Source of the DNA: an uncultured Bacilli bacterium
Lineage (GTDB): Bacteria > Bacillota_I > Bacilli_A > RF39 > UBA660
Length of the DNA stretch: 38,525 nucleotides
Direction of reading: 5' to 3'
NCBI GenBank assembly: GCA_944358735.1
Contig: CALVRT010000073.1
Coordinates: 1-38,525, forward strand
The position numbers and the translations under genes were made by a program. The notes beneath the pieces are model-generated. The model did no database searches and was not told the DNA's origin. It worked only from the letters and a program-made list of their open reading frames with translations. Below, in pieces: positions 874-38,392 of the stretch (within the stretch, counting starts at the first letter, position 1; the number at the start of each line of letters is the position of its first letter).

Positions 874-892
874 GATGGTGAGCTTGGTATTT

Positions 893-5570: not shown

Positions 5571-5600
5571 TTGCAGTTTAGTTTATTCCTATGATATAAT
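5571..5600 (+). promoter_or_regulatory. Promoter at the head of the capsule locus
   Basis: TTGCAG (5571-5576), an 18-base spacer and extended -10 TGATATAAT (5592-5600). The -10 overlaps an in-frame ATG at 5599, which therefore cannot be the start of the flippase; the start used here is ATG 5623. Confidence 0.65.
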
Positions 5601-5622
5601 GAATAATAAGTTGGTGATAGAA

Positions 5623-9005: not shown

Positions 9006-9010
9006 AACAA

Positions 9011-10507
9011 ATGAAAAGAGATAAAATCATTAAAGTTTTAATTACAATTCTTTTGTTACAACTACCATTTTTAGATATGTTTAGAACTACGGCTTTTAAG
9101 GATATTGAAATATTTGGAATTACGATAATTGAGCTCGTTAACATTATGTGGATTGGCATTGCTCTTATTCTAACTTTAACAAAAGTGAAATTAAAAGAAA
9201 TAATTAAACTTGGTATTTATTTATTAGTTGTTGGAATTTATATTTATTTGCATTATCAAAATATTATTAAATTTGATACTAATATTTTCCCTGATGCTAA
9301 TTTTAATTTTATTACCGAAACATTTTATATTTTAAGAGTATATGTTTTACCACTTATGCTTTTATATGTGCTTTTACATAATAAAGATATCTTTAATAAA
9401 GAGTACTATTTTAAAATAGTTAAATGGATAATTGGCATTATATCATTTAGTATAATCGCTTTAAATATTTTAAAACTTTCTTATATTTCTTATAGTTCTA
9501 CTCATAATCACGTTTTATATAATATGTTTGATTATTTCTTATATCAAGGTGATTATAAGCAACTAGCATCTCGTGGTTTCTTTGATTCTGCTAACGAACT
9601 TTCAGCCATTTTATTTATGCTTATGCCAATTAATATTTACTTACTTTATAAAGAAGGTAAAAAGTCCAATGTTGTTTTATATGTAGGACAGTTTTTAGCA
9701 ATGGTTTTACTAGGCACAAGGACTGCTGGCTATGGCGCCGCTATTATTAGTGTAGCTGCCTTTGCTTGCTACGGTATTGTAATTTTAATCAAAAAGGAAA
9801 AAATTAATAAATGGTTTTTAACGACATTTAGTATTGCCGCTTTAGCTTGCAGTGCTTATATGTGTATTTCACCATTTATGTTTGGCAGAATAAATGACGG
9901 AAATTATAGTTTTGCTGTTCAAAACCAAGTGGCGTATACTGATTTAGAAAATGTTGATAGTCAAGATATAGATGCCTTAATAAATAAATATAAATATGAA
10001 TATTTAATCAACGATTATTTCTTAGAAATATATCCAGTTAGTGGAGATACGGAGTTCTGGCTTAACTGTGCGAAGCGAGATAAGGCTTTAAATAACGATA
10101 GCCGGCAAATGAAGACCGATATTTTAAATAGAATTATGCAGCGTAATAATAATGATAATGATAAAATATTTGGCCTTGGTTATACTCTTAATTTTATTGA
10201 TTTAGAACGTGATTATTATTATCAGTACTATTTATTTGGTATCGCTGGATTACTTTTATTCATTGGCCCATATTTCTATTTATTAATTAAAAATATCGTT
10301 ATTGCACTTAAAAACTTTAAGAAAAATGTCTCTTTAAAAACAGTTTTATGTTTTATGAGCCCAATGCTTGGTATGATAATTGCTTATTATTCAGGTCACG
10401 TCTTTGGCTGGGTTAGTCCAATGATGTATTTAGTAATGTTCTTTGGATTACTGACTTATGTCGTTTATGAAAATAGTAAAGGGAAGGTGAAGAAAAATGA
10501 AAAATAA
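9011..10507 (+). CDS. wzy: Wzy-type polysaccharide polymerase (O-antigen ligase-like)
   Basis: 498 residues with about ten to twelve membrane helices. A large extracellular loop (about residues 300-390) lies between late helices. ASRGFFDSANELSAILFML followed by M-V-L-L-G-T-R-T-A-G-Y-G matches the membrane-embedded motif of O-antigen ligase/polymerase-like proteins. In the Wzx/Wzy pathway this protein joins flipped repeat units into polymer outside the membrane. It is the only such gene in the locus. ATG 9011 has GAGGTG at 9000-9005 before it; a GTG at 9002 would start inside that site. It overlaps the next gene by 11 bases. Confidence 0.8.
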   Translation: MKRDKIIKVLITILLLQLPFLDMFRTTAFKDIEIFGITIIELVNIMWIGIALILTLTKVKLKEIIKLGIYLLVVGIYIYLHYQNIIKFDTNIFPDANFNFITETFYILRVYVLPLMLLYVLLHNKDIFNKEYYFKIVKWIIGIISFSIIALNILKLSYISYSSTHNHVLYNMFDYFLYQGDYKQLASRGFFDSANELSAILFMLMPINIYLLYKEGKKSNVVLYVGQFLAMVLLGTRTAGYGAAIISVAAFACYGIVILIKKEKINKWFLTTFSIAALACSAYMCISPFMFGRINDGNYSFAVQNQVAYTDLENVDSQDIDALINKYKYEYLINDYFLEIYPVSGDTEFWLNCAKRDKALNNDSRQMKTDILNRIMQRNNNDNDKIFGLGYTLNFIDLERDYYYQYYLFGIAGLLLFIGPYFYLLIKNIVIALKNFKKNVSLKTVLCFMSPMLGMIIAYYSGHVFGWVSPMMYLVMFFGLLTYVVYENSKGKVKKNEK

Positions 10508-11975
10508 AATATTATTATTTATTGTTATATTTAGTGTAGCAAATATTTTCACTTTCCCAGCTTTTACCGTCACTCACGGCCTTGATAGTTACTGCACTGT
10601 TTATAATGGCTATAGTGATACAGCGCTTTGGTTTGCGCAAAATGGAAGAGTTATAACCGCTTTATTTTATTATTTGTTTGACTTTATAAATTTACCAATG
10701 GATTCTCTTGGCTTTGTTTCCGCTTTTCTAGCTAATATTTTCTTAACTTTGGCGATAATGAGAATTTATAAAGTTATTAAAGGAAATATTAATCTTAAAA
10801 ATTTCTTTTGGGAAGCTTTACTTTTAATTAGTATTTTCTTACTTTTTTATAATCCATTAATGATTGAATTATATATGGTTGATGAAACCTTTGTTATGTG
10901 TCTAGGCATTTTATGTATAACGTTAGCAGCCGATTTTATAAATAGATTAGGTATAAAAAATTATTTATTAGCTTTATTATTTATGATTATTGGCGTTATA
11001 TGTTATCAAGGAATTGCTTGTTACTTATTTATTTTAGTTATATTGTTTGCTAGTACTAAAATGGTTAATAATGATAAAAAAGATGTTATAGTTTTATGGC
11101 AAAAAATTGGCCTTTCTCTTTTAAGTTATCTTATTGCTTTTGCAGCAATGTATGGTATTTTGCAGCTAGTGTTAGCTGTAACAGGGGAGGTTACAACTAA
11201 ACTTGGAAATATTGATTTAATTGCTAATACAGTTCATATTTTTACAAATTTAATTCCAGAAGCAATGCAGAATTTCTTTGGTTTCATTAATAAAAATTTA
11301 TATTACGGTTTATGTATAATTGTTTTATTAATTACTGTTTTTGGTATCGTTAAAAATAATGGTAAAAAGATTAATATTATGTTAGTGCTTTTATTAATAA
11401 TTGCTGCTATTATCGCACCTTTTGGGCCTAATTTCGTAATGAGTACTGACCAAAATTATACGGCGGCGCGTATGACTTTAACGCTTATGACTATTCCAAG
11501 TATTTTAATGATTTTAACGGTTATAAGGTTAAAATTTGATATTAAGTATTTTGTTTATGGTTTGCTTGCGGTAATGATTATAATCTTTGCTATTTTTGCT
11601 AGACAGTTTATTGTTAATACAAAAATTGATTTAAAACGTTATAAAGCTGATACTAATTATTTAAATCAAATCTATTCGGCTTTAGATTATTATCAAAATA
11701 AAAACGATGTTAAAATAAAGACAGTATACTGGGCTAAAGACACGGATGTTGCTTATTACTATGAGTTTGGTTATCCTAACGGGGCTAATATTAGAGTGCC
11801 AGCAGTAGACTGGGCAATGGAATGCGCATTTAATGTTTATAGTAGTAATAAATACGAATATAAACCAATGAACAAAGAAAAGTATGATGAGTACTTTAAA
11901 GATAAAAATTATACAGAATTTGATGAAAAAAGTATCGTTATTAAAGGGAATAAAGCTTATGTACTTTTATATTAG
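10497..11975 (+). CDS. GtrII-family membrane glucosyltransferase-like protein
   Basis: 492 residues, about ten helices and a soluble C-terminal tail of about 115 residues. The first outer loop, T-H-G-L-D-S-Y (acidic), then NGRVITALFYYLFDF is typical of the GtrII-type GT-C family, which adds a side-chain sugar from a polyprenyl-phosphate donor on the outer face. Donor supply could come from a GT2 such as that at 30065. AAGGTGAAG precedes ATG 10497, which lies inside the end of the polymerase gene. Family placement rests on the N-terminal loop and overall layout; substrate is unknown. Confidence 0.75.
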   Translation: MKNKILLFIVIFSVANIFTFPAFTVTHGLDSYCTVYNGYSDTALWFAQNGRVITALFYYLFDFINLPMDSLGFVSAFLANIFLTLAIMRIYKVIKGNINLKNFFWEALLLISIFLLFYNPLMIELYMVDETFVMCLGILCITLAADFINRLGIKNYLLALLFMIIGVICYQGIACYLFILVILFASTKMVNNDKKDVIVLWQKIGLSLLSYLIAFAAMYGILQLVLAVTGEVTTKLGNIDLIANTVHIFTNLIPEAMQNFFGFINKNLYYGLCIIVLLITVFGIVKNNGKKINIMLVLLLIIAAIIAPFGPNFVMSTDQNYTAARMTLTLMTIPSILMILTVIRLKFDIKYFVYGLLAVMIIIFAIFARQFIVNTKIDLKRYKADTNYLNQIYSALDYYQNKNDVKIKTVYWAKDTDVAYYYEFGYPNGANIRVPAVDWAMECAFNVYSSNKYEYKPMNKEKYDEYFKDKNYTEFDEKSIVIKGNKAYVLLY

Positions 11976-11987
11976 GAAGTGAGACAA

Positions 11988-12464
11988 ATGAAAAAAAAGA
12001 AAGTAATGTTTATTGCTAGTACTGGAGGTCATTTGAATGAATTATTTCAGTTAAGGCCATTATTTAATCATTATGATTATCATATTGTTACCGAAAAAAC
12101 AGATTCCAATATTTCTTTAAAAAAGGAATATAAAGATAAAATCAATTTTGTTATTTATGGGACTAAAGACCATAAATTTACCTATTTATTTAAATTATTT
12201 TTAAACTGCTGGATTGAACTATTTATTTTTATTAAAACAAGACCTAAATATATTGTAACTACAGGAGCGCATATTGCCGGGCCAATGTGCTGCCTTGGTA
12301 AAATATTTGGAAGTAAAGTAATCTTTATTGAAACGTTTGCTAATAGTCATAGTAAAACAATTACTGGTAAACTTGTTTATAAGTTTGCTGACCTATTTAT
12401 TGTGCAGTGGGAAAGTATGCTAAAACTTTATCCTAATGCCGTGTATTGGGGGAGTGTCTATTGA
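11988..12464 (+). CDS. Alg14-like glycosyltransferase membrane subunit (PssD/EpsE type)
   Basis: 158 residues with ASTGGHLNELFQLRPLF near the N-terminus, a central membrane-associated stretch and T-T-G-A-H-I-A-G-P, all typical of the Alg14/PssD/CpsF family. These proteins anchor and activate a separate catalytic Alg13-like subunit, which here is the very next gene, to form one glycosyltransferase that usually adds the second sugar to the lipid carrier. ATG 11988 follows AGGAAGTGAG; a GTG at 11979 would sit in the ribosome binding site. Its stop TGA (12462-12464) shares bases with the TTG start of the partner, a layout suited to equal production of the two subunits. Confidence 0.9.
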   Translation: MKKKKVMFIASTGGHLNELFQLRPLFNHYDYHIVTEKTDSNISLKKEYKDKINFVIYGTKDHKFTYLFKLFLNCWIELFIFIKTRPKYIVTTGAHIAGPMCCLGKIFGSKVIFIETFANSHSKTITGKLVYKFADLFIVQWESMLKLYPNAVYWGSVY

Positions 12465-12940
12465 TTTTTGTAACCTTAGGAACACAAGATAAAAATTTTA
12501 CGAGATTGCTTGACGCTGTACAAAAACAAATAGATTTAGGTAATATAAAAGAAAAAGTTATTGTTCAATCCGGTTATACAAAATACGAAAGTAAAGATAT
12601 GGAAATTCACGACTTACTAACGATGGCTGATTTTAATAAATATATGGATAAATGTGATTTGTTAATTACACATGGTGGTGTAGGGTCAATTAATGATGCT
12701 TTAAGGCGTGGTAAAAAAATTATTGCGGCGCCAAGGTTAAAAAAATATAAGGAGCATACCAATGACCATCAATTACAAATCATTGATACTTTTAGTAAAC
12801 AAGGATATATTTTAGCTTTATATGACTTTGATAAATTAGATGAAGTTTTAGAAAAAGCCAAAACTTTTAAACCCAAGAAATTAAAAAGTAATACGAAAAA
12901 CTTTATCAATAATTTAAAAAATTATATCGATAATCATTAG
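12461..12940 (+). CDS. Alg13-like glycosyltransferase catalytic subunit (PssE/EpsF type)
   Basis: 159 residues, a GT28 C-terminal-type domain: start I-F-V-T-L-G-T-Q-D, the nucleotide-sugar site HGGVGSINDALRRGKKIIAAPR and H-T-N-D-H-Q at the end of it. It pairs with the Alg14-like protein upstream. I chose TTG 12461 because family members begin exactly at M-I-F-V-T-x-G-T and because GGGGGAG (12448-12454) sits six bases upstream; the longer TTG at 12446 would precede that site. The start overlaps the upstream stop as TTGA. The gene ends in TAG at 12938-12940, confirming TAG as a normal stop here. Confidence 0.9.
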   Translation: MIFVTLGTQDKNFTRLLDAVQKQIDLGNIKEKVIVQSGYTKYESKDMEIHDLLTMADFNKYMDKCDLLITHGGVGSINDALRRGKKIIAAPRLKKYKEHTNDHQLQIIDTFSKQGYILALYDFDKLDEVLEKAKTFKPKKLKSNTKNFINNLKNYIDNH

Positions 12941-12945
12941 ATGCG

Positions 12946-12954
12946 TGTTATAAT
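12946..12954 (+). promoter_or_regulatory. Possible internal promoter (extended -10) before the acyltransferase
   Basis: TGTTATAAT begins five bases after the TAG of the Alg13-like gene and ends 19 bases before ATG 12974. No clear -35 box is visible. The spacing resembles that of other promoters in this window with very short leaders. Confidence 0.45.
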
Positions 12955-12973
12955 AGATGGTGAGGTGGGCTGT

Positions 12974-14005
12974 ATGCCGGAAACTAAAAAAAGAATTTTA
13001 TATTATGACAACTTAAAATTTATCTTAATTCTTTTGGTAGTTATTGGTCACGTTATTGAACGCCAAGTAGATATTAGCTATATGAATGGAATATATTTAT
13101 TTATATATACTTTTCATATGCCCCTTTTTATATTTATAACTGGTTTTTTAGCTAAAAAACTAGAAGACAAAGATGGTAATTTTAGACTTTATAAAGTTAT
13201 TAATTATGTTTTATTATATTTAATATTTAAAATATCTTTATTTTTATTTAGTAAATTTATCTTGCATCAAGATATTGAATTTTATCTTTTTACGGAAAGA
13301 GAAGCTCCGTGGTATATTTTAGCTTGTGCTTTTTGGTTATCGCTCACTTACTTAACAAAAAACGTTAAACCGAAATGTATGCTTATTTTTAGTGTTATTT
13401 TAGCTTTAGTAATCGGTTATGATTTCTTTGTGGAAGATGTGTTTGTTTTATCAAGAACTATTGTTTTTTATCCATTTTTCTTACTTGGATTTTACTTATC
13501 TAAAGAAAAATTAAATAATTTTGTAAATATTATTCATCAAAGGAAATATCAATTAATATCTTTTGTTTGTTTAACTGGCTTATTAGTTTTTATGATAATA
13601 TTTGCTAGTAAAATTGGATTTATAAAAAACTTCTTATTTGGCGCCGTACCATATTATTTTGTAACGCCATTTGATACATCCCTTATTTATCCTGCTTTTA
13701 GATTATTATTTCTTGTTCTAGCGGTTATTGTATCAATTATGGTAATGGCCTTAGTTCCGCGAAGAGAAATGTTTTTTACAAGGTTAGGCACTAGAACCTT
13801 ACAAATATATGTCTTGCATTTATTCTTTATATATTTGATATTTTATACTAGAATAGGCACTTATTTGGCGGATATCTTTGAAGGTTACTGGCCGTTATTA
13901 ACAATATTAGGAGGGGCTTTATTAACATTTATATTATCATTTAAATTTATCGAGAAACCATTTAATAAAATAATGGATTTGAGGTATAAAAAAATCTTTA
14001 AATGA
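12974..14005 (+). CDS. Acyltransferase family 3 membrane protein
   Basis: 343 residues and about ten helices. The N-terminal RILYYDNLKFILILLVVIGH and the F-H-M-P-L-F-I-F-I-T-G-F-L motif are diagnostic of the acyltransferase-3/OafA-WecH family; the GH of V-I-G-H holds the likely catalytic histidine. Such enzymes usually O-acetylate capsule or wall sugars. ATG 12974 has GAGGTGG just upstream (12962-12968); an ATG at 12941 directly after the previous stop would place a -10 box and the ribosome binding site inside the gene. It may have its own promoter in addition to read-through. Acceptor unknown. Confidence 0.85.
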   Translation: MPETKKRILYYDNLKFILILLVVIGHVIERQVDISYMNGIYLFIYTFHMPLFIFITGFLAKKLEDKDGNFRLYKVINYVLLYLIFKISLFLFSKFILHQDIEFYLFTEREAPWYILACAFWLSLTYLTKNVKPKCMLIFSVILALVIGYDFFVEDVFVLSRTIVFYPFFLLGFYLSKEKLNNFVNIIHQRKYQLISFVCLTGLLVFMIIFASKIGFIKNFLFGAVPYYFVTPFDTSLIYPAFRLLFLVLAVIVSIMVMALVPRREMFFTRLGTRTLQIYVLHLFFIYLIFYTRIGTYLADIFEGYWPLLTILGGALLTFILSFKFIEKPFNKIMDLRYKKIFK

Positions 14006-14027
14006 TTTAATAGAGAGAGGTAGTTGT

Positions 14028-14789
14028 ATGAATTATGCAGCAATATTAGCTGGAGGGGTTGGTACAAGGGTTAATTCTATAGATTATCCCAAACAATTTT
14101 ACACTATCGATGGGAAACCCGTTATTATATATACAACTGAAAAATTAGTTAATTCAAGTTTAATTGACCTTGTTTATATTGCTGTCATCGAAGATTATTA
14201 TGATTATATGATGGCACTTTTGGAGGAATATAATTTAACTGAAAAAACAGTTTTAATTACTGGTGGAAAAACTAGAATGGATACAATTGATAAAGTTGTT
14301 GAAGCAATTTTACAGAAAAACATTACCGATGATGATGTTATATTGATTCACGATGCTGTAAGACCTTTTATTACGAATAAAATTATTGAGGATAGTATTG
14401 AAGGTGCCAAAAAGTATGGGGCTACGGTGGCTACTATACCAGCCACTGATACTATCGTTTCATCGGTAGATGATAATGTGGTTAGTTTTATTCCTAACAG
14501 AAGAGAACTTTACTGTGGTCAGTCGCCGGATACTTTTAATTTAAAACGTTTTATTGAGATGGAAGGTAATTTAACAGAAGAACAAAAGAATTTAGTTACT
14601 GGCACTTCTCAAGTATGTACATTAAACGGTCAAGAAATCCATATGATTCCTGGTGACCCAATTAATTTTAAAATTACTACAGATTTTGATTTGTTAATAG
14701 CTGAAAATATTATTGCAGGAGGGTATAATGAAAAAGATGATAACAATTCCGTCAAAAGTAAAAGTTTTAAACTTAAAGGCCATAAATAA
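14028..14789 (+). CDS. tarI: D-ribitol-5-phosphate cytidylyltransferase (TarI)
   Basis: 253 residues of the IspD/TarI cytidylyltransferase family: LAGGVGTR (7-14) and YPKQF (20-24) form the CTP loop, H-D-A-V-R-P-F (108-114) and the late P-G-D-P-I-N-F-K-I-T-T-D-F-D segment complete the site. IspD and TarI are hard to tell apart by motif, but the next gene is TarJ, which supplies ribitol 5-phosphate, so TarI is the better call: CTP + ribitol-5-P gives CDP-ribitol. GAGAGAGG precedes ATG 14028. The last 20 residues, after the core, overlap the start of tarJ by 62 bases in another frame and look like a non-conserved tail. Confidence 0.87.
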   Translation: MNYAAILAGGVGTRVNSIDYPKQFYTIDGKPVIIYTTEKLVNSSLIDLVYIAVIEDYYDYMMALLEEYNLTEKTVLITGGKTRMDTIDKVVEAILQKNITDDDVILIHDAVRPFITNKIIEDSIEGAKKYGATVATIPATDTIVSSVDDNVVSFIPNRRELYCGQSPDTFNLKRFIEMEGNLTEEQKNLVTGTSQVCTLNGQEIHMIPGDPINFKITTDFDLLIAENIIAGGYNEKDDNNSVKSKSFKLKGHK

Positions 14790-15801
14790 TTTGGTTTATG
14801 AAGATATTGATGTTAAGGCTTTAGAACCCGGAACGGTCCTAGTAAAGGTTATGGCTTGTGGGATATGTTCTAGTGACATTGAAAGAGTATTTGTAAATGG
14901 AACTTATCATTTTCCAACCGTTATTGGTCACGAATTTTCTGGCCGAATTGTTGCGGTTTACGATGATGAAAATGCTGATTTATTAGGTAAAAAAGCGGCA
15001 ATTTTTCCTCTTTTGCCTTGTAAAAAATGTGATGCGTGCAAGGAAGAAAACTATGCCCTTTGCAGTAATTATAATTATTTTGGCTCAAGATGTGACGGTG
15101 GCTTTAGCCAATATCTAGTAGTTCCTATATGGAATTTAGTTCTTTTTGATAACATTAGTTATGAAGAAGCAGCAATGTGTGAGCCAGCCGCAGTTGCCTT
15201 ACATGCGGTTAGAAAAGCGAATATTACTAAAGACGATACTGTTTTACTAGTTGGTACGGGTACAATTGCTTTTTTAATTGGTTTATTTTGTCAAAGTGTT
15301 GGCGCTAAAGTTATAATGGCTGGTCGCCGAAAAGAAAGCTTAAAAATGGCTGAAGACTATGGTTTTATTCCAATTGTAAATGATGATAATGTAAAACAAA
15401 ATTTAAAAAATGTTATTGGAAAAGAAAATGTTGATACTGTTTTTGAAGTGGTTGGTAGTAACTCTGCTATTAACAGTGCTTTGAGTTTAGCTTTAAAAAA
15501 AGCTATATTAGTTGGTAACCCGAAGGAAGATGTTTTACTAGAAAAAAATAATTATTGGCGTATTTTGAGAAAAGAACTTCAAGTAATTGGTTCTTGGAAT
15601 TCTAATTTTGGTTCTCAAAAAAATGACTGGCAAGATGTATTACAAATGTTAGATAACAAGAAAGTTAGTTTTAATAATTTAATAACCAAAGTTTATGATA
15701 TGAAAGATTACAAAGAAGCTTTTAATTTAGTAAAAAGTGCCGCTTTAACTTTTAAAGTAATTTTAAGACCAAATGGGGTGGATAGCGATGAAAAAAGGTA
15801 A
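14728..15801 (+). CDS. tarJ: Ribulose-5-phosphate reductase (TarJ), zinc-dependent alcohol dehydrogenase family
   Basis: 357 residues of the medium-chain dehydrogenase family. Catalytic zinc ligands: Cys44 in A-C-G-I-C-S-S-D and His68-Glu69 in I-G-H-E-F-S-G. Structural zinc: four cysteines at 98, 101, 104 and 112. Cofactor fold: LLVGTGTIAFLIGLF (near 170-185). TarJ reduces D-ribulose 5-phosphate to D-ribitol 5-phosphate with NADPH for TarI. AGGAGGG at 14717-14723 lies five bases before ATG 14728, inside tarI, so the two are translationally coupled. It overlaps the epimerase gene by 14 bases. Together with tarI this gives a full route from ribulose 5-phosphate to CDP-ribitol. Confidence 0.88.
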   Translation: MKKMITIPSKVKVLNLKAINNLVYEDIDVKALEPGTVLVKVMACGICSSDIERVFVNGTYHFPTVIGHEFSGRIVAVYDDENADLLGKKAAIFPLLPCKKCDACKEENYALCSNYNYFGSRCDGGFSQYLVVPIWNLVLFDNISYEEAAMCEPAAVALHAVRKANITKDDTVLLVGTGTIAFLIGLFCQSVGAKVIMAGRRKESLKMAEDYGFIPIVNDDNVKQNLKNVIGKENVDTVFEVVGSNSAINSALSLALKKAILVGNPKEDVLLEKNNYWRILRKELQVIGSWNSNFGSQKNDWQDVLQMLDNKKVSFNNLITKVYDMKDYKEAFNLVKSAALTFKVILRPNGVDSDEKR

Positions 15802-16468
15802 AATATCCGCTTCGATGATGTGCGCTGATTTAGATAAAATATTTTATTATTTAGCTGAATTTAAAAAAGCTAATTTAGATTTTTTGCATATTGATGTTAT
15901 GGATGGTAGTTTTGTTCCTAATTTAGCGCTTGGAACTGATTATGTACGTTCTTTAAGAAGAAGCACTGATGTTCCTTTTGATTTTCATTTTTTAGTCAAT
16001 GAACCATTAACTAAAATGGCTTGGTTTGATATTCGTCCAGGAGACCAAGTAGCTTTTCATTTTGAAAATAATCAAAAAGTAAATGATTGTATTGAGTATG
16101 TAAAAGAAAAGAAAGCCAAAGTTTTTATTGCTATTAATCCAGAAACTGATTTTCATTTATTGGATGCTTATTTAGATAAAATAGATGGTGTTTTAGTAAT
16201 GATGGTAAGTCCTGGTTTTGCCGGCCAAAAAATGTTACCATTTACGGTTAATAAGGTAGGACAATTACATGAATATTTACTAAAAAATAAATATACTAAT
16301 ATTGAAATTGAAGTTGATGGTAATATTTCTATCGAAAAAGCGAAAGCATTATATCAAAAGGGTGCTAGAATCTTTGTAGCTGGTTCTTCTAGTTTATTTA
16401 AAAATAGTGAGGCTTCACTTTCAGAGACAATTGAGCAAATGCATAAAGTTATTGGCTGGCAAGAGTAG
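15788..16468 (+). CDS. rpe: Ribulose-phosphate 3-epimerase-like protein
   Basis: 226 residues, a TIM-barrel of the ribulose-phosphate/allulose-6-phosphate 3-epimerase family. Metal and acid-base residues are visible: H-I-D-V-M-D-G (His and Asp), D-F-H-F-L-V (His) and I-E-V-D-G-N-I (Asp), plus the phosphate loop G-F-A-G-Q-K. Rpe interconverts xylulose 5-phosphate and ribulose 5-phosphate. Its place inside the tarI-tarJ-licD row suggests it feeds ribulose 5-phosphate to TarJ rather than serving central metabolism. GGGGTGGAT lies before ATG 15788, inside the end of tarJ; a GTG at 15779 would overlap that site. It could instead act on another ketose phosphate. Confidence 0.8.
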   Translation: MKKGKISASMMCADLDKIFYYLAEFKKANLDFLHIDVMDGSFVPNLALGTDYVRSLRRSTDVPFDFHFLVNEPLTKMAWFDIRPGDQVAFHFENNQKVNDCIEYVKEKKAKVFIAINPETDFHLLDAYLDKIDGVLVMMVSPGFAGQKMLPFTVNKVGQLHEYLLKNKYTNIEIEVDGNISIEKAKALYQKGARIFVAGSSSLFKNSEASLSETIEQMHKVIGWQE

Positions 16469-16478
16469 GGGTGATTTG

Positions 16479-17306
16479 ATGAATAATAATGAAACTTTAA
16501 AAAAATTACATTCAGTTGAAGTTGAAATTTTAGATGAAATCGTTAGAGTATGTGAAAAAAACAATATTAATTATTTTTTATGTGGCGGTACTTTATTAGG
16601 CGCGATTAGACATAAAGGCTTTATTCCTTGGGATGATGATATGGATATCGCAATGTTTAGAGAAGACTATAATAAGTTTATTGAAATTGCTCCGAAAGAA
16701 TTAAATAAAAAATACTGTTTAGATTGTTATCAAACTAATAAAAATTGTTATTTTCCATTTTTAAAAGTTCGAAAAAACAATACTTTATTAGATGAAGCCT
16801 TGGTAAGCCATTTGGATACTAATAAAGGTATTTTTGTCGACATTTTCCCTTTAGAAAAAATTGAAAATCCATATTCTAAAAAATTAAGAATCGATGCGTT
16901 ACTAATAAAAAACATTTGGGATGTTATTTTATATAAATATAAAATAGTTAAAGATATAAAGGGTTGTCGCCATCCTTTTTTAGCCAGATTATTAAATATA
17001 TATAGTTTAGATAAACTAAAACAAAAGCAATTAAAATTATTAGAAAAACAAAATAACTCTGAAGCTACTACCGTTTGTAGTTTAATTGGGGCTTATGATT
17101 ACCGAAAAGAAATATATGATTTAAAGGAGTTAATTCCAGCCAGTGAAGTTACCTTTGAAAATAAAAAATATAAAACATTTAAAAATTATGATTACTATTT
17201 AACTAAATTGTATGGTAATTATATGGAACTTCCACCTAAAGATAAAAGAGTTAATCATATGCCAAAACAAATTATATTTGATTTAAAGAGTAAAAATAAA
17301 CAATAA
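16479..17306 (+). CDS. licD: LicD-family phosphotransferase
   Basis: 275 residues with GGTLLGAIRHKGFIPWDDD (36-54) ending in D-D-D-M-D, the nucleotidyltransferase-fold metal motif of LicD, fukutin and FKRP. Family members transfer phosphocholine (bacterial LicD) or ribitol phosphate (fukutin, FKRP) from a CDP-activated donor onto a sugar. No choline kinase or choline cytidylyltransferase is seen, while tarI and tarJ stand immediately upstream, so transfer of ribitol phosphate from CDP-ribitol is the best inference. GGGGTGATTTG precedes ATG 16479, ten bases after the epimerase stop. No membrane helix is present; it acts in the cytoplasm on the lipid-linked repeat unit. Confidence 0.85.
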   Translation: MNNNETLKKLHSVEVEILDEIVRVCEKNNINYFLCGGTLLGAIRHKGFIPWDDDMDIAMFREDYNKFIEIAPKELNKKYCLDCYQTNKNCYFPFLKVRKNNTLLDEALVSHLDTNKGIFVDIFPLEKIENPYSKKLRIDALLIKNIWDVILYKYKIVKDIKGCRHPFLARLLNIYSLDKLKQKQLKLLEKQNNSEATTVCSLIGAYDYRKEIYDLKELIPASEVTFENKKYKTFKNYDYYLTKLYGNYMELPPKDKRVNHMPKQIIFDLKSKNKQ

Positions 17307-27411: not shown

Positions 27412-28062
27412 GTGAAGAATAAATATCATATAACTAAAGAGGATAATATCTTTTTTGCCAAACAGAAACTCGTTGATAATATTTATAAAAGTGCGAATTT
27501 AGAAGGTATTAAAATAAGCTTGGCCGACGTTTATTCATTTATGAGTAACGTTAATGCTGGCAACATTTCCGTGGATGAAATGCTTAAATTAAAAGGTTTA
27601 AAAGATACCTGGGAGTATGTTATAAAGCATATAGATGATGAGCTAACAATAAATTATATAAAGAAAATTCACTTTGAAGTTTGTAAAGGGCAAAATATTA
27701 TACCACTTGGTGAATTTAGGGATAAGGGAGTAGGCATAATGGGAACTAATTGGCGGCCTAAATTACCTAGTGAGTGTGACTATGAAAGTGAACTTAAAGA
27801 AATACTTTCTATTCCTGGTGAATTAGATAGATGTATTAGTATATTTTGTTGGATACAGAGAAATCAAATGTTTTTGGACGGTAATAAACGCGTGGCAAAT
27901 TTAATTGCTAATAAGGAAATGATTAAATATGGTCAAGGAATTCTGGCCGTACCAGTAGAAAAAATTGGTGAATATTTAATTAAACTTATCCATTATTATG
28001 AGACAAATGATATGACAGATTTAAAAAAATGGATTTATGATAACTGTATTGATGGCATATAA
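27412..28062 (+). CDS. Fic-domain protein with Gln in place of the catalytic His
   Basis: 216 residues. The Fic loop is at 152-160 and reads Q-M-F-L-D-G-N-K-R, where active Fic proteins have H-x-F-x-(D/E)-G-N. The anchoring Phe, Asp, Gly, Asn and Arg are all kept, so the nucleotide site is likely intact, but the general base is Gln152. An inhibitory-helix motif, S-A-N-L-E-G (27-32), fits (S/T)-x3-E-(G/N) and puts it with N-terminally self-inhibited Fic proteins. Fic enzymes normally transfer AMP or another phosphate moiety to a target hydroxyl. Here that activity is doubtful. Start GTG 27412 follows AAAGGTGAT; the promoter carries a palindrome. No antitoxin partner is beside it. Confidence 0.8.
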   Translation: MKNKYHITKEDNIFFAKQKLVDNIYKSANLEGIKISLADVYSFMSNVNAGNISVDEMLKLKGLKDTWEYVIKHIDDELTINYIKKIHFEVCKGQNIIPLGEFRDKGVGIMGTNWRPKLPSECDYESELKEILSIPGELDRCISIFCWIQRNQMFLDGNKRVANLIANKEMIKYGQGILAVPVEKIGEYLIKLIHYYETNDMTDLKKWIYDNCIDGI

Positions 28063-30064: not shown

Positions 30065-30997
30065 ATGAAAATAAGTATTATTGTTCCTTGTTATAACGAA
30101 GAAGAAATGATTGAACTATATTATAAAGAAATGCAAAAAGTTATGAAAAAACTGGAAAAAACTGAATTTGAACTAATTTTCATTAATGATGGAAGTACAG
30201 ATAAAACTTTAGACATTTTAAGAAAATTAAGTAAAAATAAAGATGTAAGATATATTTCTTTTTCAAGAAACTTTGGTAAAGAAGCCGGGATATATGCTGG
30301 GCTTAAATATGCAACTGGAGACTATGTCGGTCTTATGGATGTCGACCTTCAAGACCCGCCAGAAATGCTTATCGAGATGTACAATACTTTGGAAGAAAAA
30401 GAATATGACTGTGTGGCTACTAGACGCGTTAGTAGAGAAGGAGAGCCACCAATTAGAAGTTTTTTTGCGAGACTTTATTATAAAATAATTAATAAAATTT
30501 CTAAAACTGAAATAGTTGATGGAGCAAGAGACTTTCGGTTAATGACTAGACAAATGGTTGATTCTATTTTAGAAGTTACAGAATATAATCGTTTTTCTAA
30601 AGGCATTTTTAGCTGGGTTGGTTATAAAACTAAATGGCTTGAGTATAAAAACGTGGAAAGAGTCGCTGGCACTTCTAAATGGTCCTTTTGGAAATTATTC
30701 TTATATTCTTTAGAAAGTATTGTGGCCTTTTCTACTGTTCCGCTAACAATAGCTTCAGTCTTTGGTATTTTATTTTGTTTAGTTGCCTTCATAATTATCG
30801 TCTTTATTGTAATTAGAACACTTGTTTTTGGCGACCCAACTAGCGGCTGGCCTAGTATGGTATGTATAATGTTCTTTATTGGTGGTGTACAGCTTCTTTG
30901 TACTGGTATTTTAGGTCAGTATTTATCAAAAACATATTTAGAAGTAAAACATCGTCCGATATATATTGTAAAGGAAACCGAAGAAGATAATGGTTAA
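30065..30997 (+). CDS. GtrB-like polyprenyl-phosphate glycosyltransferase (GT2 with two C-terminal helices)
   Basis: 310 residues. GT2 domain with ISIIVPCYNEEEMIELYY, I-N-D-G-S-T-D-K-T, R-N-F-G-K-E-A and the metal site M-D-V-D-L-Q-D-P-P; then two helices (about 228-260 and 272-296), the layout of GtrB, CsbB and YkcC. Family role: make polyprenyl-phosphate glucose or GlcNAc on the inner face, to be flipped and used by GT-C enzymes outside. Candidate users are the GtrII-like and other membrane transferases in this window. AGGAGAT is before ATG 30065. Next to it are phosphoglycerol transferases, an arrangement that suggests sugar decoration of a glycerol-phosphate polymer such as lipoteichoic acid. 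Confidence 0.9.
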   Translation: MKISIIVPCYNEEEMIELYYKEMQKVMKKLEKTEFELIFINDGSTDKTLDILRKLSKNKDVRYISFSRNFGKEAGIYAGLKYATGDYVGLMDVDLQDPPEMLIEMYNTLEEKEYDCVATRRVSREGEPPIRSFFARLYYKIINKISKTEIVDGARDFRLMTRQMVDSILEVTEYNRFSKGIFSWVGYKTKWLEYKNVERVAGTSKWSFWKLFLYSLESIVAFSTVPLTIASVFGILFCLVAFIIIVFIVIRTLVFGDPTSGWPSMVCIMFFIGGVQLLCTGILGQYLSKTYLEVKHRPIYIVKETEEDNG

Positions 30998-31015
30998 TAA
31001 GGGAGGTAACGGGAA

Positions 31016-31372
31016 ATGCTTGTAATTATTGCCTTATTTGGTCCAAGTATAATAGGATTAAAATTTTTAGATTATTTTGTAAAGCTAAATAAGAAAAATA
31101 CTATTTATTATTTTGTAATATTATTAACAATTTCTGTAACGCTTAATAATATTATTTCTTATTTATTTTTCAATATCGCTGATGTAATTTATCATTTAAA
31201 TATTTTACCAATTTATTTTGGTAAATATGTATTTATTTCTTTAATGATTAACATTGTATTAGCTGTAATTTTAAGTATTATTATTAAGGGTGTTAGTTTA
31301 AAAATCGAGGTTGAAAATGTTGAAAAAAATAAAAAAAGTACTAAATCAATTAAAAAAGATAAAAATAAGTAA
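31016..31372 (+). CDS. Small three-helix membrane protein, copy 1 of a duplicated module
   Basis: 118 residues. Three membrane helices (about 1-18, 26-51, 65-90) and a Lys-rich cytoplasmic tail (K-K-D-K-N-K). I do not recognise the family. AGGGAGGT precedes ATG 31016. Its tail overlaps the start of the OpgB-like gene by 56 bases in the +1 frame. The same gene pair recurs at 32952-34980, where the small protein has the same start pattern (I-I-A-x-x-x-P-S-x-x-G-x-K-x-x-D-Y). Constant pairing suggests a subunit or regulator of the phosphoglycerol transferase. Confidence 0.75.
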   Translation: MLVIIALFGPSIIGLKFLDYFVKLNKKNTIYYFVILLTISVTLNNIISYLFFNIADVIYHLNILPIYFGKYVFISLMINIVLAVILSIIIKGVSLKIEVENVEKNKKSTKSIKKDKNK

Positions 31373-32939
31373 GATTTTATTTTATTTAATTTTAACACTT
31401 TCATTAATATTAGTATTTGTGTGTCTTTATATTCAGGAAAGTTTTTACAATGTTACAGTTGAGCAGTTAATTTATAGTATTAGAACTGCAACTGGAACTA
31501 GCGATAGTATGATAATGGGTGGCGTAGTTTATGTGATGCCAAGAGTAATATTTATCTATCTAATTTTACTGGTTCTTAAAGTCTTATGGAAACATTTTGT
31601 AAAAATTAAAAGCCAAATGAATATAAAAATTAAGAATAAAATTTTTACTATTTCTTTGATTAACCCTCTTAATAATATAATTAAACTTATTTTAAGTTTT
31701 CTAGTTTTATTTTTTAGTATTTATTATGTTTATATCAGTCTTGGGGTAAAAGATTATTTATCACTTAATCAAAAAGGTACTTTTATAGAGGATAATTATG
31801 TTAATCCTGAAGATGTAAAAATCACAGCACCAGAGAAAAAACAAAATTTAATTTATATTTATGTCGAATCTTTAGAAACAAGTTTATTTTCTAATGAAAA
31901 CGGTGGTGATTTCCAAACATCAGTTATTCCTAATTTAGAAAAGTTAGCTAGTGATAATATAAATTTTAGTAATACTGATGTTTTAGGTGGATATTATGTC
32001 CCGTATGGAACAAATTGGACGGTCGCAGGTATTGTTGGCTCGACAGCAGGAATCCCTTTAAAAGTTCCAGCAATTGATGCTGATTTATATTCAGGTTATG
32101 GAGAATTTTTGCCCGGTGCTTATACTTTAGGCGAGGTGCTAGAAGATAATGGATATCATAATTATATGATGTTAGGTTCTGATGCAACATTCGGTGGTCG
32201 TGGAGATTATTTTAAATATCATGGGAATTATGAAGTTTATGATTATAATTATGCTATAAAACAACACTGGATTGATAAAGATTACCATGTTTGGTGGGGT
32301 TACGAAGATAAAAAATTATTTAAATTTGCGAAAGCTAAATTGTTAGAAATATCAGAAAATGATGAACCATTTAATTTTACAATGTTGACAGCTGATACAC
32401 ACGCTACTGATGGATATTTAGATGCTTCTTGTGATACGCCATTTGATGAACAATATTTAAATACTTTTCATTGTGCTGATAAAATGCTCTCTGATTTTAT
32501 TGACTGGCTTAAAGAGCAAGACTTTTATGAAGATACAACGATTGTTATAACTGGAGACCATTTAACGATGCAAAAAGATTATATGAATTTATATAATACA
32601 CCTGATAATGCGCCATATTATGAGAGAAAAGTATTTAATACATTTATCAATTCTAAAGTAAAGACTGATAACTATCATAATATAAACTTTACTACTTTTG
32701 ATATATATCCAACAACTTTGGCAGCGTTAGGTTTTGAAATAGATGGCAATCGCCTTGGATTTGGTTATAATTTATTTGCTAAACAAAATACTTTAGTTAA
32801 TGAATTAGGGATAAATGAGCTGGATACTGAATTAAGCAAAGTTTCTGATTTTTACAATGATTATATACTTGGTGATACTTATAATAAAATGAAAAATATA
32901 GAAATGGAAGGACAATTAGAAGAAAAAAATAAGAATTAG
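31317..32939 (+). CDS. OpgB/LtaS-type phosphoglycerol transferase, copy 1
   Basis: 540 residues. Three N-terminal helices (about 19-38, 74-92, 122-143) and an outward sulfatase/alkaline-phosphatase-fold domain from about 175. Active-site features: Y-V-E-S-L-E (Glu184), the nucleophile region Y-G-T-N-W-T-V-A-G (Thr235) followed by G-S-T-A-G-I-P-L as in OpgB, T-A-D-T-H-A-T-D-G, and T-G-D-H-L-T-M (Asp414, His415). Such enzymes take glycerol phosphate from phosphatidylglycerol or polymer onto glycans. The G-I-P-L form is closer to OpgB (decorating a glycan) than to LtaS (building lipoteichoic acid). ATG 31317 follows GAGG and lies inside the preceding gene. Confidence 0.85.
   Translation: MLKKIKKVLNQLKKIKISKILFYLILTLSLILVFVCLYIQESFYNVTVEQLIYSIRTATGTSDSMIMGGVVYVMPRVIFIYLILLVLKVLWKHFVKIKSQMNIKIKNKIFTISLINPLNNIIKLILSFLVLFFSIYYVYISLGVKDYLSLNQKGTFIEDNYVNPEDVKITAPEKKQNLIYIYVESLETSLFSNENGGDFQTSVIPNLEKLASDNINFSNTDVLGGYYVPYGTNWTVAGIVGSTAGIPLKVPAIDADLYSGYGEFLPGAYTLGEVLEDNGYHNYMMLGSDATFGGRGDYFKYHGNYEVYDYNYAIKQHWIDKDYHVWWGYEDKKLFKFAKAKLLEISENDEPFNFTMLTADTHATDGYLDASCDTPFDEQYLNTFHCADKMLSDFIDWLKEQDFYEDTTIVITGDHLTMQKDYMNLYNTPDNAPYYERKVFNTFINSKVKTDNYHNINFTTFDIYPTTLAALGFEIDGNRLGFGYNLFAKQNTLVNELGINELDTELSKVSDFYNDYILGDTYNKMKNIEMEGQLEEKNKN
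31821..31876 (+). repeat. Near-identical DNA segment shared with 33855-33912
   Basis: The stretch encoding I-T-A-P-E-K-K-Q-N-L-I-Y-I-Y-V-E-S-L-E is almost unchanged at the DNA level in the second module, including synonymous positions. This supports a recent duplication or gene conversion. Confidence 0.7.
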
Positions 32940-32951
32940 GGAGGTTTTGGT

Positions 32952-33395
32952 ATGTTTGCAATAATTGCGATACTGCTACCCAGTTTTTTGGGAATAAAAT
33001 TAATGGATTACTTATTAAAAGGTTTAAAATTAAAGGATTTGATTTTATATTATGGAATTTTAGTTTTACTTACACAAAGTATTAATAATGTTTTAGTAAA
33101 GTATTATTATAATCTTGATGATAATTTATGGAATTCTTTAAATATCGGTACTGATTTTTTCAGTATATACATTTTAGTTTCAATAGTTATAAATATTTTG
33201 TTAGTTTTAATATTAGTTGTTTTAATAAAAAATATTAAATTTGAAGTAGAGGTTGAAGAATATGCGGGAAAGAGTAAAAACAATGAAACAAGCATTACGA
33301 AAAACAAACATGTTTTTATTAAAAAAGATAGTAAAAATTCTAAAGAGTTGTTTGCTAAAATTAAAAGACCTTTTAAGAAAAATAAAAATAAGTAA
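32952..33395 (+). CDS. Small three-helix membrane protein, copy 2 of a duplicated module
   Basis: 147 residues, paralogue of the protein at 31016: MFAIIAILLPSFLGIKLMDY at the start, three helices, F-E-V-E-V-E-E and a longer Lys-rich tail (ends K-K-N-K-N-K). GGGAGG is before ATG 32952. The tail is some 30 residues longer than in copy 1 and overlaps the next gene by 134 bases, again in the +1 frame. Function unknown; likely a partner of the transferase that follows. Confidence 0.75.
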   Translation: MFAIIAILLPSFLGIKLMDYLLKGLKLKDLILYYGILVLLTQSINNVLVKYYYNLDDNLWNSLNIGTDFFSIYILVSIVINILLVLILVVLIKNIKFEVEVEEYAGKSKNNETSITKNKHVFIKKDSKNSKELFAKIKRPFKKNKNK

Positions 33396-34980
33396 AATAT
33401 TAATTTTCTTGTTTTTAACTTTGACATTAATATGTTTATTCTTATATAACTATATAAATGAAAATTTTTATAATGTAACTATTGAACAATTATTATTTAG
33501 TGTACAAATGTCTGAAGGAACTAGTAATTCAGTTGTTATTGAAGGGGCTAAATATATTATTGCGAGAATAATTGCCGTATATTTAGTGCTATTTGTTATA
33601 TGTTTTATTATAAAAAAGATTAGAAAAAAACATACTAGTTTTAATCTTTATATAAGGAATAAAAAAATAAGAATATCATTAGTTCCTTTTTCTAACTTCT
33701 TTAAGGTATTAGCCTGTTTTGTTATTCTTTTAAGTAGCGTATATTATTGTGCAAGTGAATTTGAAGTATTTGCTTATTTTGGTACTAATACAACTGATGA
33801 TTCAAAGGACGGTGATTTCTTTGAAAATAATTATATTGACCCTAAAAAAGTTAAAATAACAGCACCAGAGAAGAAACAAAATTTAATTTACATTTATGTC
33901 GAATCTTTAGAATCATCAATGGTTACCGAAAAAAATAATGGAGCTTTTAAAAAGAAAGTTATTCCTAATTTAGAAAAAATCGCGAAAGATAATATTAATT
34001 TTAGTAACAATGATAAAATAGGTGGCGCGTATATGCCTTATGGAAACAGTTGGACAATCGCTGGAATGGTTGGTTCGACGTCAGGAATACCTTTAAAATT
34101 ATCATCAGTAGGAGGTAATGAATATTCGGGTTATGGAGAATTTTTACCAGGCGCTTATACTTTAGGTGATGTTTTAAATAAAAATGGTTATAATAATTAT
34201 TTATTTATTGGCTCTGATGCGGAATTTGGTGGCAGGAAAGACTATTTTACTTATCACGGGGATTATAATATTTATGATTATAATTACGCTATTAATCAAG
34301 GCCGGATTGATGAAGATTATTATGTATGGTGGGGTTATGAAGACAGAAAACTTTTTGATTTCGCTAAAGATACCCTTAAAGATATCTCTAAAGAAAACGA
34401 ACCATTTAATTTTACATTATTAACAACCGATACGCACTTTACCGATGGTTATATTGAAGAAGGTTGTGAAACACCATTTGATGAACAATATTTAAATGCT
34501 TATCATTGTTCAGATGAACTAATTAATAAGTTTATAAATTGGATAAAAAAACAAGATTTTTATGAAAATACAACCATTGTTATAACTGGAGACCATTTAA
34601 CAATGCAATCCAATATGCATCAAATGTTTGATATCAGCAATAAAGAAGATTATGAACGAACAATTTATAACGCTATTATTAATTCTAAAACAACAACCGA
34701 AACCACTAAAAACCGAATTTTTACAACTTATGATTTTTATCCGACTGTTTTAGCTTCTTTAGGCTTTAAAATAGAAGGAGATAGACTTGGTTTAGGTACT
34801 AATTTATTTTCGACAATGCCAACAATTGCTGAAGAACTTGGAATGGATAAATTAGATAAAGAATTAAAACAAAATTCTACTTATTATGAAGACTATTTAT
34901 TAAATAATTTAGAAGATAAATCAAATGCTAAAGTTGAGGCGTCTGCTAGTAATTCTCCGGTACCATCAAATAATTCATAA
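33262..34980 (+). CDS. OpgB/LtaS-type phosphoglycerol transferase, copy 2
   Basis: 572 residues, paralogue of the protein at 31317, with all catalytic parts kept: Y-V-E-S-L-E (Glu214), Y-G-N-S-W-T-I-A-G (Thr265), G-S-T-S-G-I-P-L, T-T-D-T-H-F-T-D-G and T-G-D-H-L-T-M (Asp444, His445). The N-terminus is about 25-30 residues longer and very basic before helix 1, and the C-terminus has a Ser/Pro/Asn-rich tail. ATG 33262 has AGAGG nine bases upstream; ATG 33283 or 33310 remain possible and would shorten the overlap with the upstream gene. Differences around the WT loop (T-N-W versus N-S-W) hint at different acceptors. Confidence 0.85.
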   Translation: MRERVKTMKQALRKTNMFLLKKIVKILKSCLLKLKDLLRKIKISKILIFLFLTLTLICLFLYNYINENFYNVTIEQLLFSVQMSEGTSNSVVIEGAKYIIARIIAVYLVLFVICFIIKKIRKKHTSFNLYIRNKKIRISLVPFSNFFKVLACFVILLSSVYYCASEFEVFAYFGTNTTDDSKDGDFFENNYIDPKKVKITAPEKKQNLIYIYVESLESSMVTEKNNGAFKKKVIPNLEKIAKDNINFSNNDKIGGAYMPYGNSWTIAGMVGSTSGIPLKLSSVGGNEYSGYGEFLPGAYTLGDVLNKNGYNNYLFIGSDAEFGGRKDYFTYHGDYNIYDYNYAINQGRIDEDYYVWWGYEDRKLFDFAKDTLKDISKENEPFNFTLLTTDTHFTDGYIEEGCETPFDEQYLNAYHCSDELINKFINWIKKQDFYENTTIVITGDHLTMQSNMHQMFDISNKEDYERTIYNAIINSKTTTETTKNRIFTTYDFYPTVLASLGFKIEGDRLGLGTNLFSTMPTIAEELGMDKLDKELKQNSTYYEDYLLNNLEDKSNAKVEASASNSPVPSNNS

Positions 34981-37381: not shown

Positions 37382-37405
37382 AAAGGCTTGAAAAGGGGGT
37401 ATAAT

Positions 37406-38392
37406 ATGTTTTTACAAACTTTATCTCATAATGAACTTAATGATTTGTTGGAATATTTAAAAACTTATAAGCTTCAATATAAAAATAAAGTTAATTTACC
37501 GGAAAATTTAACATTTGGTATTGAAATCGAGGGTGTTGGTAAATGGTTTGACAGTTTTAGTGAAAAAATATCGGATGAAGGATGGAAAATAGCTGATGAT
37601 ATATCTTTATTAGATGCCGGCGATGAAGCTATCTCCCCTATTTTAAGAAACGAACCCAAAAGCTGGGGAAGCATAAAATATATGTGTGAACTATTAAAAA
37701 ATAATGGGATTTATATTAGTGATAGATGTGCCGGACATATTCATTATGGACATGATGGCTTAATTGACGAAGATTCGGAAAAATTATTTAACATTATGAA
37801 ATTATGGGCCGCTTATGAAAGCGTCATTTATAAATATAGTGCTGGAAATTTTGCAACTTTGCGAGATTCTATATGGGAATATGCCAAACCATATGCGAAA
37901 CATATTAAGAAATTGGTTGAAAATATGGGAAATAACGAGTTTGATTATAAAACTATGATATATTTAATTTGTAAAGGTCGCCATTATGGAGTTAATATCG
38001 AAAATTTATGGAATGCTTTTGCTTCAAAAAACTTACCAAAAACAGTTAATAATACAATTGAGGTTCGAGTGCCTAACGGAACATTAAATCCGGTTATTTG
38101 GCAAAATAATATTAGATTTTTTGGAAATTTATTTACTTGTGCTACAGAAGCAAAATTTGATGATGAGAGAATTAAATATATAATCCAAAAATTACCGTTT
38201 AGCGAATATAATGTTAATAGAAAAAGTGACTTTTCATTTTATAAGCATATTAATTTACCATTAGCTTTAGAGCTTGCCGATACTATTTTTACTGATGATG
38301 ATGATAAATACAGCTTTTTGGCGCAGTATTTATATGGTGATAATGTATTTGAAAATCCCCAAGAAAAAGAGAAAACTTTAGTAATGCACTAA
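37406..38392 (+). CDS. Amidoligase-family protein (COOH-NH2 ligase fold)
   Basis: 328 residues. Motifs of the amidoligase branch of the glutamine-synthetase/ATP-grasp-like COOH-NH2 ligases: L-T-F-G-I-E-I-E-G (about 36-44), G-D-E-A-I-S-P-I-L (Glu74), C-A-G-H-I-H-Y-G (His111, His113) and late N-T-I-E-V-R-V-P-N-G-T-L. Family members are predicted to form amide or isopeptide bonds in peptide-like products or wall parts using ATP. No membrane helix or signal is present. AGGGGGT lies before ATG 37406; TTG 37388 overlaps the region before that site. It has its own consensus promoter and a terminator overlapping its stop. Substrate is unknown. Confidence 0.8.
   Translation: MFLQTLSHNELNDLLEYLKTYKLQYKNKVNLPENLTFGIEIEGVGKWFDSFSEKISDEGWKIADDISLLDAGDEAISPILRNEPKSWGSIKYMCELLKNNGIYISDRCAGHIHYGHDGLIDEDSEKLFNIMKLWAAYESVIYKYSAGNFATLRDSIWEYAKPYAKHIKKLVENMGNNEFDYKTMIYLICKGRHYGVNIENLWNAFASKNLPKTVNNTIEVRVPNGTLNPVIWQNNIRFFGNLFTCATEAKFDDERIKYIIQKLPFSEYNVNRKSDFSFYKHINLPLALELADTIFTDDDDKYSFLAQYLYGDNVFENPQEKEKTLVMH

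What the first reader, a model, noticed from the sequence alone, without database searches (positions are those of the whole stretch)
31016..34980. Tandem module: small membrane protein overlapping an OpgB-type transferase in the +1 frame, twice
The pair occurs twice in a row, each time with the transferase starting inside the tail of the small protein in the same relative frame (56 and 134 bases shared). Long coding overlap kept after duplication implies tight coupling of translation and a functional complex. The family of the small protein is unknown to me. Together with GtrB, a UbiA-type enzyme and mnmA at its head, this may be an undescribed extracellular glycerol-phosphate decoration system.
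Basis: partly seen in the sequence, partly recalled or inferred. Interest (0 to 1): 0.65.

Follow-up and report, generated by a model that had tools for sequence, protein, structure and literature searches.

The report
Unnamed membrane partner of phosphoglycerol transferases
Twice in a row this bacterium has a tiny unnamed membrane-protein gene overlapping the gene for an enzyme that probably puts phosphate-linked glycerol on surface sugars; in relatives the two genes stay overlapped or become one protein, so they probably work as one machine, though its purpose is untested.

Summary
Two tandem modules each hold a ~120-150 aa three-helix membrane protein whose tail overlaps (+1 frame; 56 and 134 nt) an OpgB/LtaS-superfamily transferase. 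The duplication predates the split of three species. The small protein has no Pfam or NCBIfam family. I found 34 separate small-transferase pairs in the same bacterial family. In the 33 with a readable transferase start, the genes always overlap (4-134 nt). No separate small gene lacked its transferase. The same domain is fused N-terminally to OpgB-type enzymes (G006 and, more distantly, G438), to LtaS-type enzymes (four genomes) and to one other polytopic protein. This supports an accessory membrane subunit acting in a complex with the transferase. It is optional: OpgB-type enzymes without it occur in 7 of 19 genomes, scattered on the tree. The +1 frame is the ordinary phase of long overlaps here, and a normal Shine-Dalgarno plus start codon lies inside the small gene, so frameshifting is not needed; such long overlaps also fit classical termination-reinitiation poorly. 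The proposed system with gtrB, ubiA and mnmA is not supported beyond the close lineage. Glycerol phosphate as substrate is probable by homology, untested. No prior description was found in the searched library.

The parts
31001..31007 (+). Shine-Dalgarno of small gene 1 (GGGAGGT)
   Evidence: sequence
31016..31372 (+). small gene 1: 118 aa, three predicted transmembrane helices, Lys-rich cytosolic tail
   Evidence: ORF, AlphaFold2 helices 2-22, 26-51, 61-116, family alignments A3/A6
31307..31311 (+). internal Shine-Dalgarno GAGGT of opgB-type gene 1, written by the codons of the small protein's IEVE motif
   Evidence: equivalent sites in most relatives
31317..31372 (+). coding overlap 1, 56 nt (53 nt if TTG 31320 is the start, as in L001 and L002)
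31317..32939 (+). OpgB-type phosphoglycerol transferase 1: Lys-rich head, three transmembrane helices, extracellular sulfatase-fold domain
   Evidence: PF00884 E 1.6e-20; phosphoglycerol transferase I E 3.8e-55, below curated cut-off; Foldseek LtaP/LtaS/GacH
32939..32945 (+). Shine-Dalgarno of small gene 2 (GGGAGGT), touching the stop codon of opgB-type gene 1
   Evidence: sequence
32952..33395 (+). small gene 2: 147 aa, paralogue of small gene 1 with a longer tail
33249..33253 (+). internal Shine-Dalgarno GAGGT of opgB-type gene 2, 8 nt before its ATG
33262..33395 (+). coding overlap 2, 134 nt
   Evidence: 131 and 134 nt in L001 and L002
33262..34980 (+). OpgB-type phosphoglycerol transferase 2
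   Evidence: PF00884 E 6e-21; 55% identical to copy 1
30065..30997 (+). GtrB/PgfS-like polyprenyl-phosphate glycosyltransferase; linked only in the close lineage
   Evidence: NCBIfam PgfS E 3.8e-99, below cut-off; L001, L002
35019..35897 (+). UbiA-family prenyltransferase, decaprenyl-phosphate phosphoribosyltransferase-like; downstream in L002 too

Best explanation
The small gene encodes a dedicated three-helix membrane accessory subunit of an OpgB-type transferase, and the two act as one membrane complex. Shown: duplicated, co-inherited, always overlapping genes; natural fusions in the topologically sensible order; conserved predicted architecture. Inferred: its C-terminal tail and the enzyme's N-terminal head are both cytosolic, so the fusion joint and the overlap lie on the same side of the membrane. 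The short conserved segment (FxxxFxxKY) at the outer end of helix 3 would face the same side as the enzyme's extracellular catalytic domain, where it could position the acceptor glycan or the phosphatidylglycerol donor, or hold the enzyme in the right oligomer or place. The enzyme most likely transfers glycerol phosphate from phosphatidylglycerol to a surface glycan. Overlapping the genes, with the enzyme's ribosome-binding site inside the small gene, keeps their synthesis together. The two window copies are an old duplication and probably two enzyme-partner pairs of differing specificity.
For: 34 separate small-transferase pairs found; 32 overlap by 11-134 nt in +1 and one by 4 nt, with one (L050) lacking a readable start. 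Every confident separate small hit among 386 genomes of the family lies directly before an OpgB-type gene. A model built only from separate small proteins finds the domain at the N-terminus of L112 (1e-20), L116 (6e-18), L120 (2e-8), L165 (1e-7) and L122 (2e-6), while ordinary LtaS proteins of the same bacteria score nothing there. In L116, L120 and L122 the domain precedes an LtaS-type enzyme. OpgB fusions: L048 and the single-contig genome G438. AlphaFold2: three helices, pLDDT 77. Closely overlapping pairs often encode complex subunits (PMC10666635).
Against: No interaction or activity has been measured. Seven of 19 genomes with OpgB-type enzymes lack any detectable small protein, and the lack is scattered on the tree (at least 6 changes), so it is not essential to the fold or catalysis. 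With the separate-only model the L048 and G438 fusion domains score 1e-4 and 2e-5, close to the best background hit (2.3e-4), so those two rest partly on position; L048 could also hide an assembly indel. The LtaS fusions already carry the enzyme's own helices, so the module does not simply complete a missing membrane part. Foldseek gives no fold relative for the small protein.
Confidence: 0.66

Rival explanations
1. Plain operon compaction: the overlap is tolerated because both overlapping tails are Lys-rich and weakly constrained in an AT-rich genome; the small protein is merely co-regulated and does something independent.
For: In the overlap the enzyme frame is less constrained than elsewhere (46% versus 28% amino-acid differences); overlap length varies from 4 to 134 nt; other genes in these loci also overlap, mostly by less than 29 nt.
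Against: The small gene was never found without its transferase and is fused to enzymes of the same superfamily in several genomes; compaction explains the overlap but not the fusions.
Confidence: 0.17
2. The two genes make a fused protein by +1 frameshifting or polymerase slippage in the A-rich overlap, as well as separate products.
For: Constant +1 phase in 32 of 34 pairs; A-rich overlaps; natural fusions exist.
Against: Most pairs have a normal start codon with a Shine-Dalgarno 4-12 nt upstream inside the small gene; no shared slippery motif is seen by eye in the 34 overlaps; the +1 phase is the usual one for other long overlaps here.
Confidence: 0.04
3. The small protein is a GacJ-like (DUF2304) helper of the neighbouring GtrB glycosyltransferase, as in GacI-GacJ.
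For: It follows gtrB directly in the window; similar size and three-helix topology; GacJ enhances GacI (PMC8327497).
Against: No DUF2304 match; profile-profile probability 0.6%; in most relatives gtrB is not adjacent while the transferase always is.
Confidence: 0.03
4. The pair is a complex as proposed, but the group moved is not glycerol phosphate, for example phosphoethanolamine or another phospholipid head group.
For: The same fold includes MCR-1/EptA-type phosphoethanolamine transferases, and no family cut-off for OpgB is reached.
Against: Best family matches are phosphoglycerol transferase I and OpgB (1e-43 to 1e-56), then LtaS; the fold search ranks Listeria LtaP first and LtaS proteins near the top.
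Confidence: 0.1

Closest known systems
OpgB (MdoB), phosphoglycerol transferase I of Enterobacteria
   Same: Best family match of both transferases; membrane helices before an extracellular sulfatase-fold domain.
   Different: Match lies far below the curated cut-off; no small partner subunit is described for OpgB in the papers searched; host is a Gram-positive lineage without periplasmic glucans (own knowledge).
GacH, glycerol-phosphate transferase of streptococcal group A carbohydrate
   Same: Same fold (6dgm, 5u9z); uses phosphatidylglycerol to decorate a wall glycan, in a cluster with a GtrB-like enzyme (PMC12282279).
   Different: GacH has a 395-residue membrane domain in one chain; here the enzyme has three helices and a separate three-helix partner.
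LtaS / LtaP lipoteichoic acid synthases
   Same: Same catalytic superfamily; four LtaS-type relatives carry the small domain at their N-terminus.
   Different: Window enzymes match OpgB better than LtaS; the genome has a separate ordinary LtaS without the small domain.
GacI-GacJ (GtrB-type synthase plus DUF2304 membrane protein)
   Same: A small membrane protein enhancing a partner enzyme in wall-glycan synthesis (PMC8327497).
   Different: Not homologous by profile comparison; partner is the transferase, not GtrB.
MspA of Staphylococcus aureus
   Same: Small membrane protein reported to bind LTA enzymes including LtaS (PMC11323550).
   Different: Both termini predicted outside the membrane; acts mainly through signal peptidase SpsB; the passages read report no overlap with or fusion to ltaS.

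Membership tests
Sulfatase / alkaline phosphatase superfamily (PF00884) | Sulfatase domain over the gathering cut-off | tested here: met
   74.1 and 75.5 bits against a cut-off of 25
OpgB phosphoglycerol transferase | NCBIfam equivalog match over cut-off | tested here: not met
   148-190 bits against cut-offs of 572-574, though by far the best matches
OpgB phosphoglycerol transferase | Metal-site and nucleophile region equivalents: ESLE, G-x-x-W-T-[IV]-A-G, GDH | tested here: inconclusive
   ESLE and GDH positions align with LtaS and these motifs are conserved in six proteins; the nucleophile assignment is from memory of the family
OpgB phosphoglycerol transferase | Transfers glycerol phosphate from phosphatidylglycerol | not testable with these tools
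   needs enzyme assay or glycan analysis
LtaS | Five N-terminal membrane helices and NCBIfam LtaS match over cut-off | tested here: not met
   33-41 bits against cut-off 970; three helices in the model (low confidence)
DUF2304 / GacJ | Match of the small protein to PF10066 or profile similarity | tested here: not met
   no Pfam match; hhalign probability 0.6%
Any named Pfam or NCBIfam family (small protein) | Match over curated cut-off | tested here: not met
   17 members scanned; only weak scattered matches, best E 5e-4, to unrelated membrane families

The most novel reading that the evidence does not exclude
The small protein is an undescribed interchangeable membrane module of the OpgB/LtaS superfamily, used as a separate overlapping subunit, as an N-terminal fusion on OpgB-type and LtaS-type enzymes and on at least one other polytopic envelope protein, that selects or presents the acceptor glycan, so that swapping modules changes which surface polymer is decorated.
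Probability: 0.27. Interest if true: 0.62.

Novelty: new variant of a known kind. Interest (0 to 1): 0.46.

Why it matters
OpgB, GacH and LtaS enzymes are treated as single-chain transferases. A conserved accessory subunit, seen both split and fused, would give a handle on an open question: how enzymes that work outside the cell pick one surface polymer from several. It would also name a protein family that current annotation leaves as hypothetical.

Tried and rejected
DUF2304/GacJ homology: rejected by profile comparison. Frameshift or slippage fusion product: no shared slippery site seen, normal internal start and Shine-Dalgarno in most pairs. Significance of the +1 frame: rejected, same phase in 18 of 20 other long overlaps. 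Conserved gene system around the pair: 70 neighbours of 22 loci gave 100 Pfam families, none in more than 3 neighbours. Fold search with the small protein: nothing. Dual-coding constraint: third positions of the enzyme frame vary less in the overlap (0.28 versus 0.41) and second positions more (0.26 versus 0.12), as expected if both frames are used, but the overlap is not more conserved overall, so it is suggestive only. The genome-contig scan with a single protein found just two loci. A scan of viral contigs with the small alignment could not be run. Class and phylum searches found no convincing separate small gene outside the host family.

Full report
What is there. The window belongs to a 1.39 Mb genome (G000, 88% complete) whose nearest named records are uncultured Bacilli MAGs. 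At 31016-34980 there are two tandem modules, each a small membrane-protein gene followed by a transferase gene that starts inside it. Overlaps are 56 nt (53 if TTG 31320 is used, as its orthologues seem to, having no ATG there) and 134 nt, both with the transferase in the +1 frame. The small proteins are 35% identical to each other and the transferases 55%. Both small genes have a strong Shine-Dalgarno.

The transferases. Both carry a sulfatase-superfamily domain (PF00884). Their best NCBIfam models are phosphoglycerol transferase I and OpgB (E 1e-43 to 1e-56, under the strict cut-offs), ahead of LtaS. A model of copy 1, of low confidence (pLDDT 57), shows three membrane helices and then the extracellular domain; Foldseek ranks Listeria LtaP first and lists LtaS and GacH. 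ESLE and GDH align with LtaS and are conserved among six proteins. The genome also has one ordinary LtaS.

The small protein. No Pfam or NCBIfam family reaches a cut-off in any of 17 members. AlphaFold2 predicts three long helices (2-22, 26-51, 61-116; pLDDT 77). The positive-inside rule puts the Lys-rich linker and tail in the cytosol and the conserved FxxxFxxKY segment at the outer end of helix 3 (inference). No solved structure resembles it.

Distribution. In 98 genomes of the host family, nearly one per genus, OpgB-type genes occur in 19 (those with E below 1e-80). In 12 of these the small protein is adjacent or fused, in 7 it was not detected. Across 386 genomes of the family, confident separate small hits always sit directly before an OpgB-type gene. 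Of 34 pairs examined, 32 overlap by 11-134 nt in the +1 frame, one by 4 nt, and one (L050) has no readable transferase start. Outside the family no convincing separate small gene was found in samples of 395 class and 295 phylum genomes, which overlap each other.

Fusions. In G006 one 605-residue protein joins the small domain to an OpgB-type enzyme. In G438, a single-contig genome of another family, an OpgB-type protein carries a similar N-terminal domain; G461 has a close relative whose reading frame is interrupted within that domain, and G143 has an extension of like size that the model does not recognise. In G467, G636, G478 and G008 the small domain precedes an LtaS-type enzyme; for the first three the LtaS homology was mapped, for G008 it is judged from length and context. 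In G084 it precedes an unidentified polytopic protein cut by the contig end. As a control, a model made only from separate small proteins still finds the G084, G467, G636, G008 and G478 domains at 1e-20 to 2e-6 and always at the N-terminus. G438 (2e-5) and G006 (1e-4) are weaker and near the best background hit (2e-4), which lies inside another protein. Ordinary LtaS proteins do not score.

Evolution. A tree of 56 OpgB-type sequences puts each window copy with its own orthologues in L001 and L002 (both clades 100), so the duplication is older than these three species. Enzymes without the small protein are scattered (at least 6 changes forced by well-supported branches). Tandem opgB-type duplications without a second small gene exist in L056 and L114.

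The overlap. Long overlaps are special to this pair (12 of 21 at least 29 nt, against 1 of 193 other pairs); the +1 phase is not. In most pairs the transferase's Shine-Dalgarno (GAGGT or AAGGA) lies in codons of the small protein's conserved tail motif (IEV, VKE). Termination-reinitiation acts near -8 to +10 nt (PMC10666635); relatives with overlaps near 4-20 nt may come close to this, but at 56 or 134 nt direct initiation at the internal site during translation of the small gene is more likely. No frameshift is needed.

Surroundings. mnmA is a tRNA-modification gene. gtrB and ubiA accompany the modules only in the close lineage, and neighbours elsewhere are diverse. The window does lie beside a large polysaccharide cluster with ribitol-phosphate-type genes, and in L060 an OpgB-type domain is fused to an O-antigen-ligase-like domain and a WecG/TagA domain, which favours a surface glycan as acceptor.

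Conclusion. The best reading is a dedicated, optional accessory membrane subunit of OpgB-type transferases. Complex formation is strongly suggested by adjacency, overlap and fusion; its biochemical role and the transferred group are inferred. Literature searches found no description of such a subunit, but only open-licence papers were searchable.

Noticed in passing
window 5599-17306: Large surface-polysaccharide cluster: Wzx-type flippase, several glycosyltransferases, O-antigen ligase, GtrII, Alg14/Alg13-like pair, and IspD/TarI-like, alcohol dehydrogenase (TarJ-like), ribulose-phosphate epimerase and LicD genes, suggesting a CDP-ribitol route.
   Followed up: partly
window 2976-5510: 844-aa protein with about ten ricin-type lectin stretches and a C-terminal GH25 muramidase domain.
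   Followed up: no
L060:6855-10475: 1207-aa ORF joining O-antigen-ligase-like, WecG/TagA/CpsF and OpgB-type domains in one chain.
   Followed up: partly
L112:2-1255: Small domain fused to a polytopic protein with no Pfam match, cut by the contig end.
   Followed up: partly
L055:7287-8255: Glycerol-3-phosphate dehydrogenase (GpsA) directly upstream of an OpgB-type gene that lacks the small gene.
   Followed up: no
window 27412-28062 and 37388-38392: Fic-domain protein and amidoligase-family protein flanking the region.
   Followed up: no
window 875-1324: GtrA/DPMS-type small membrane protein at the left end of the window.
   Followed up: no
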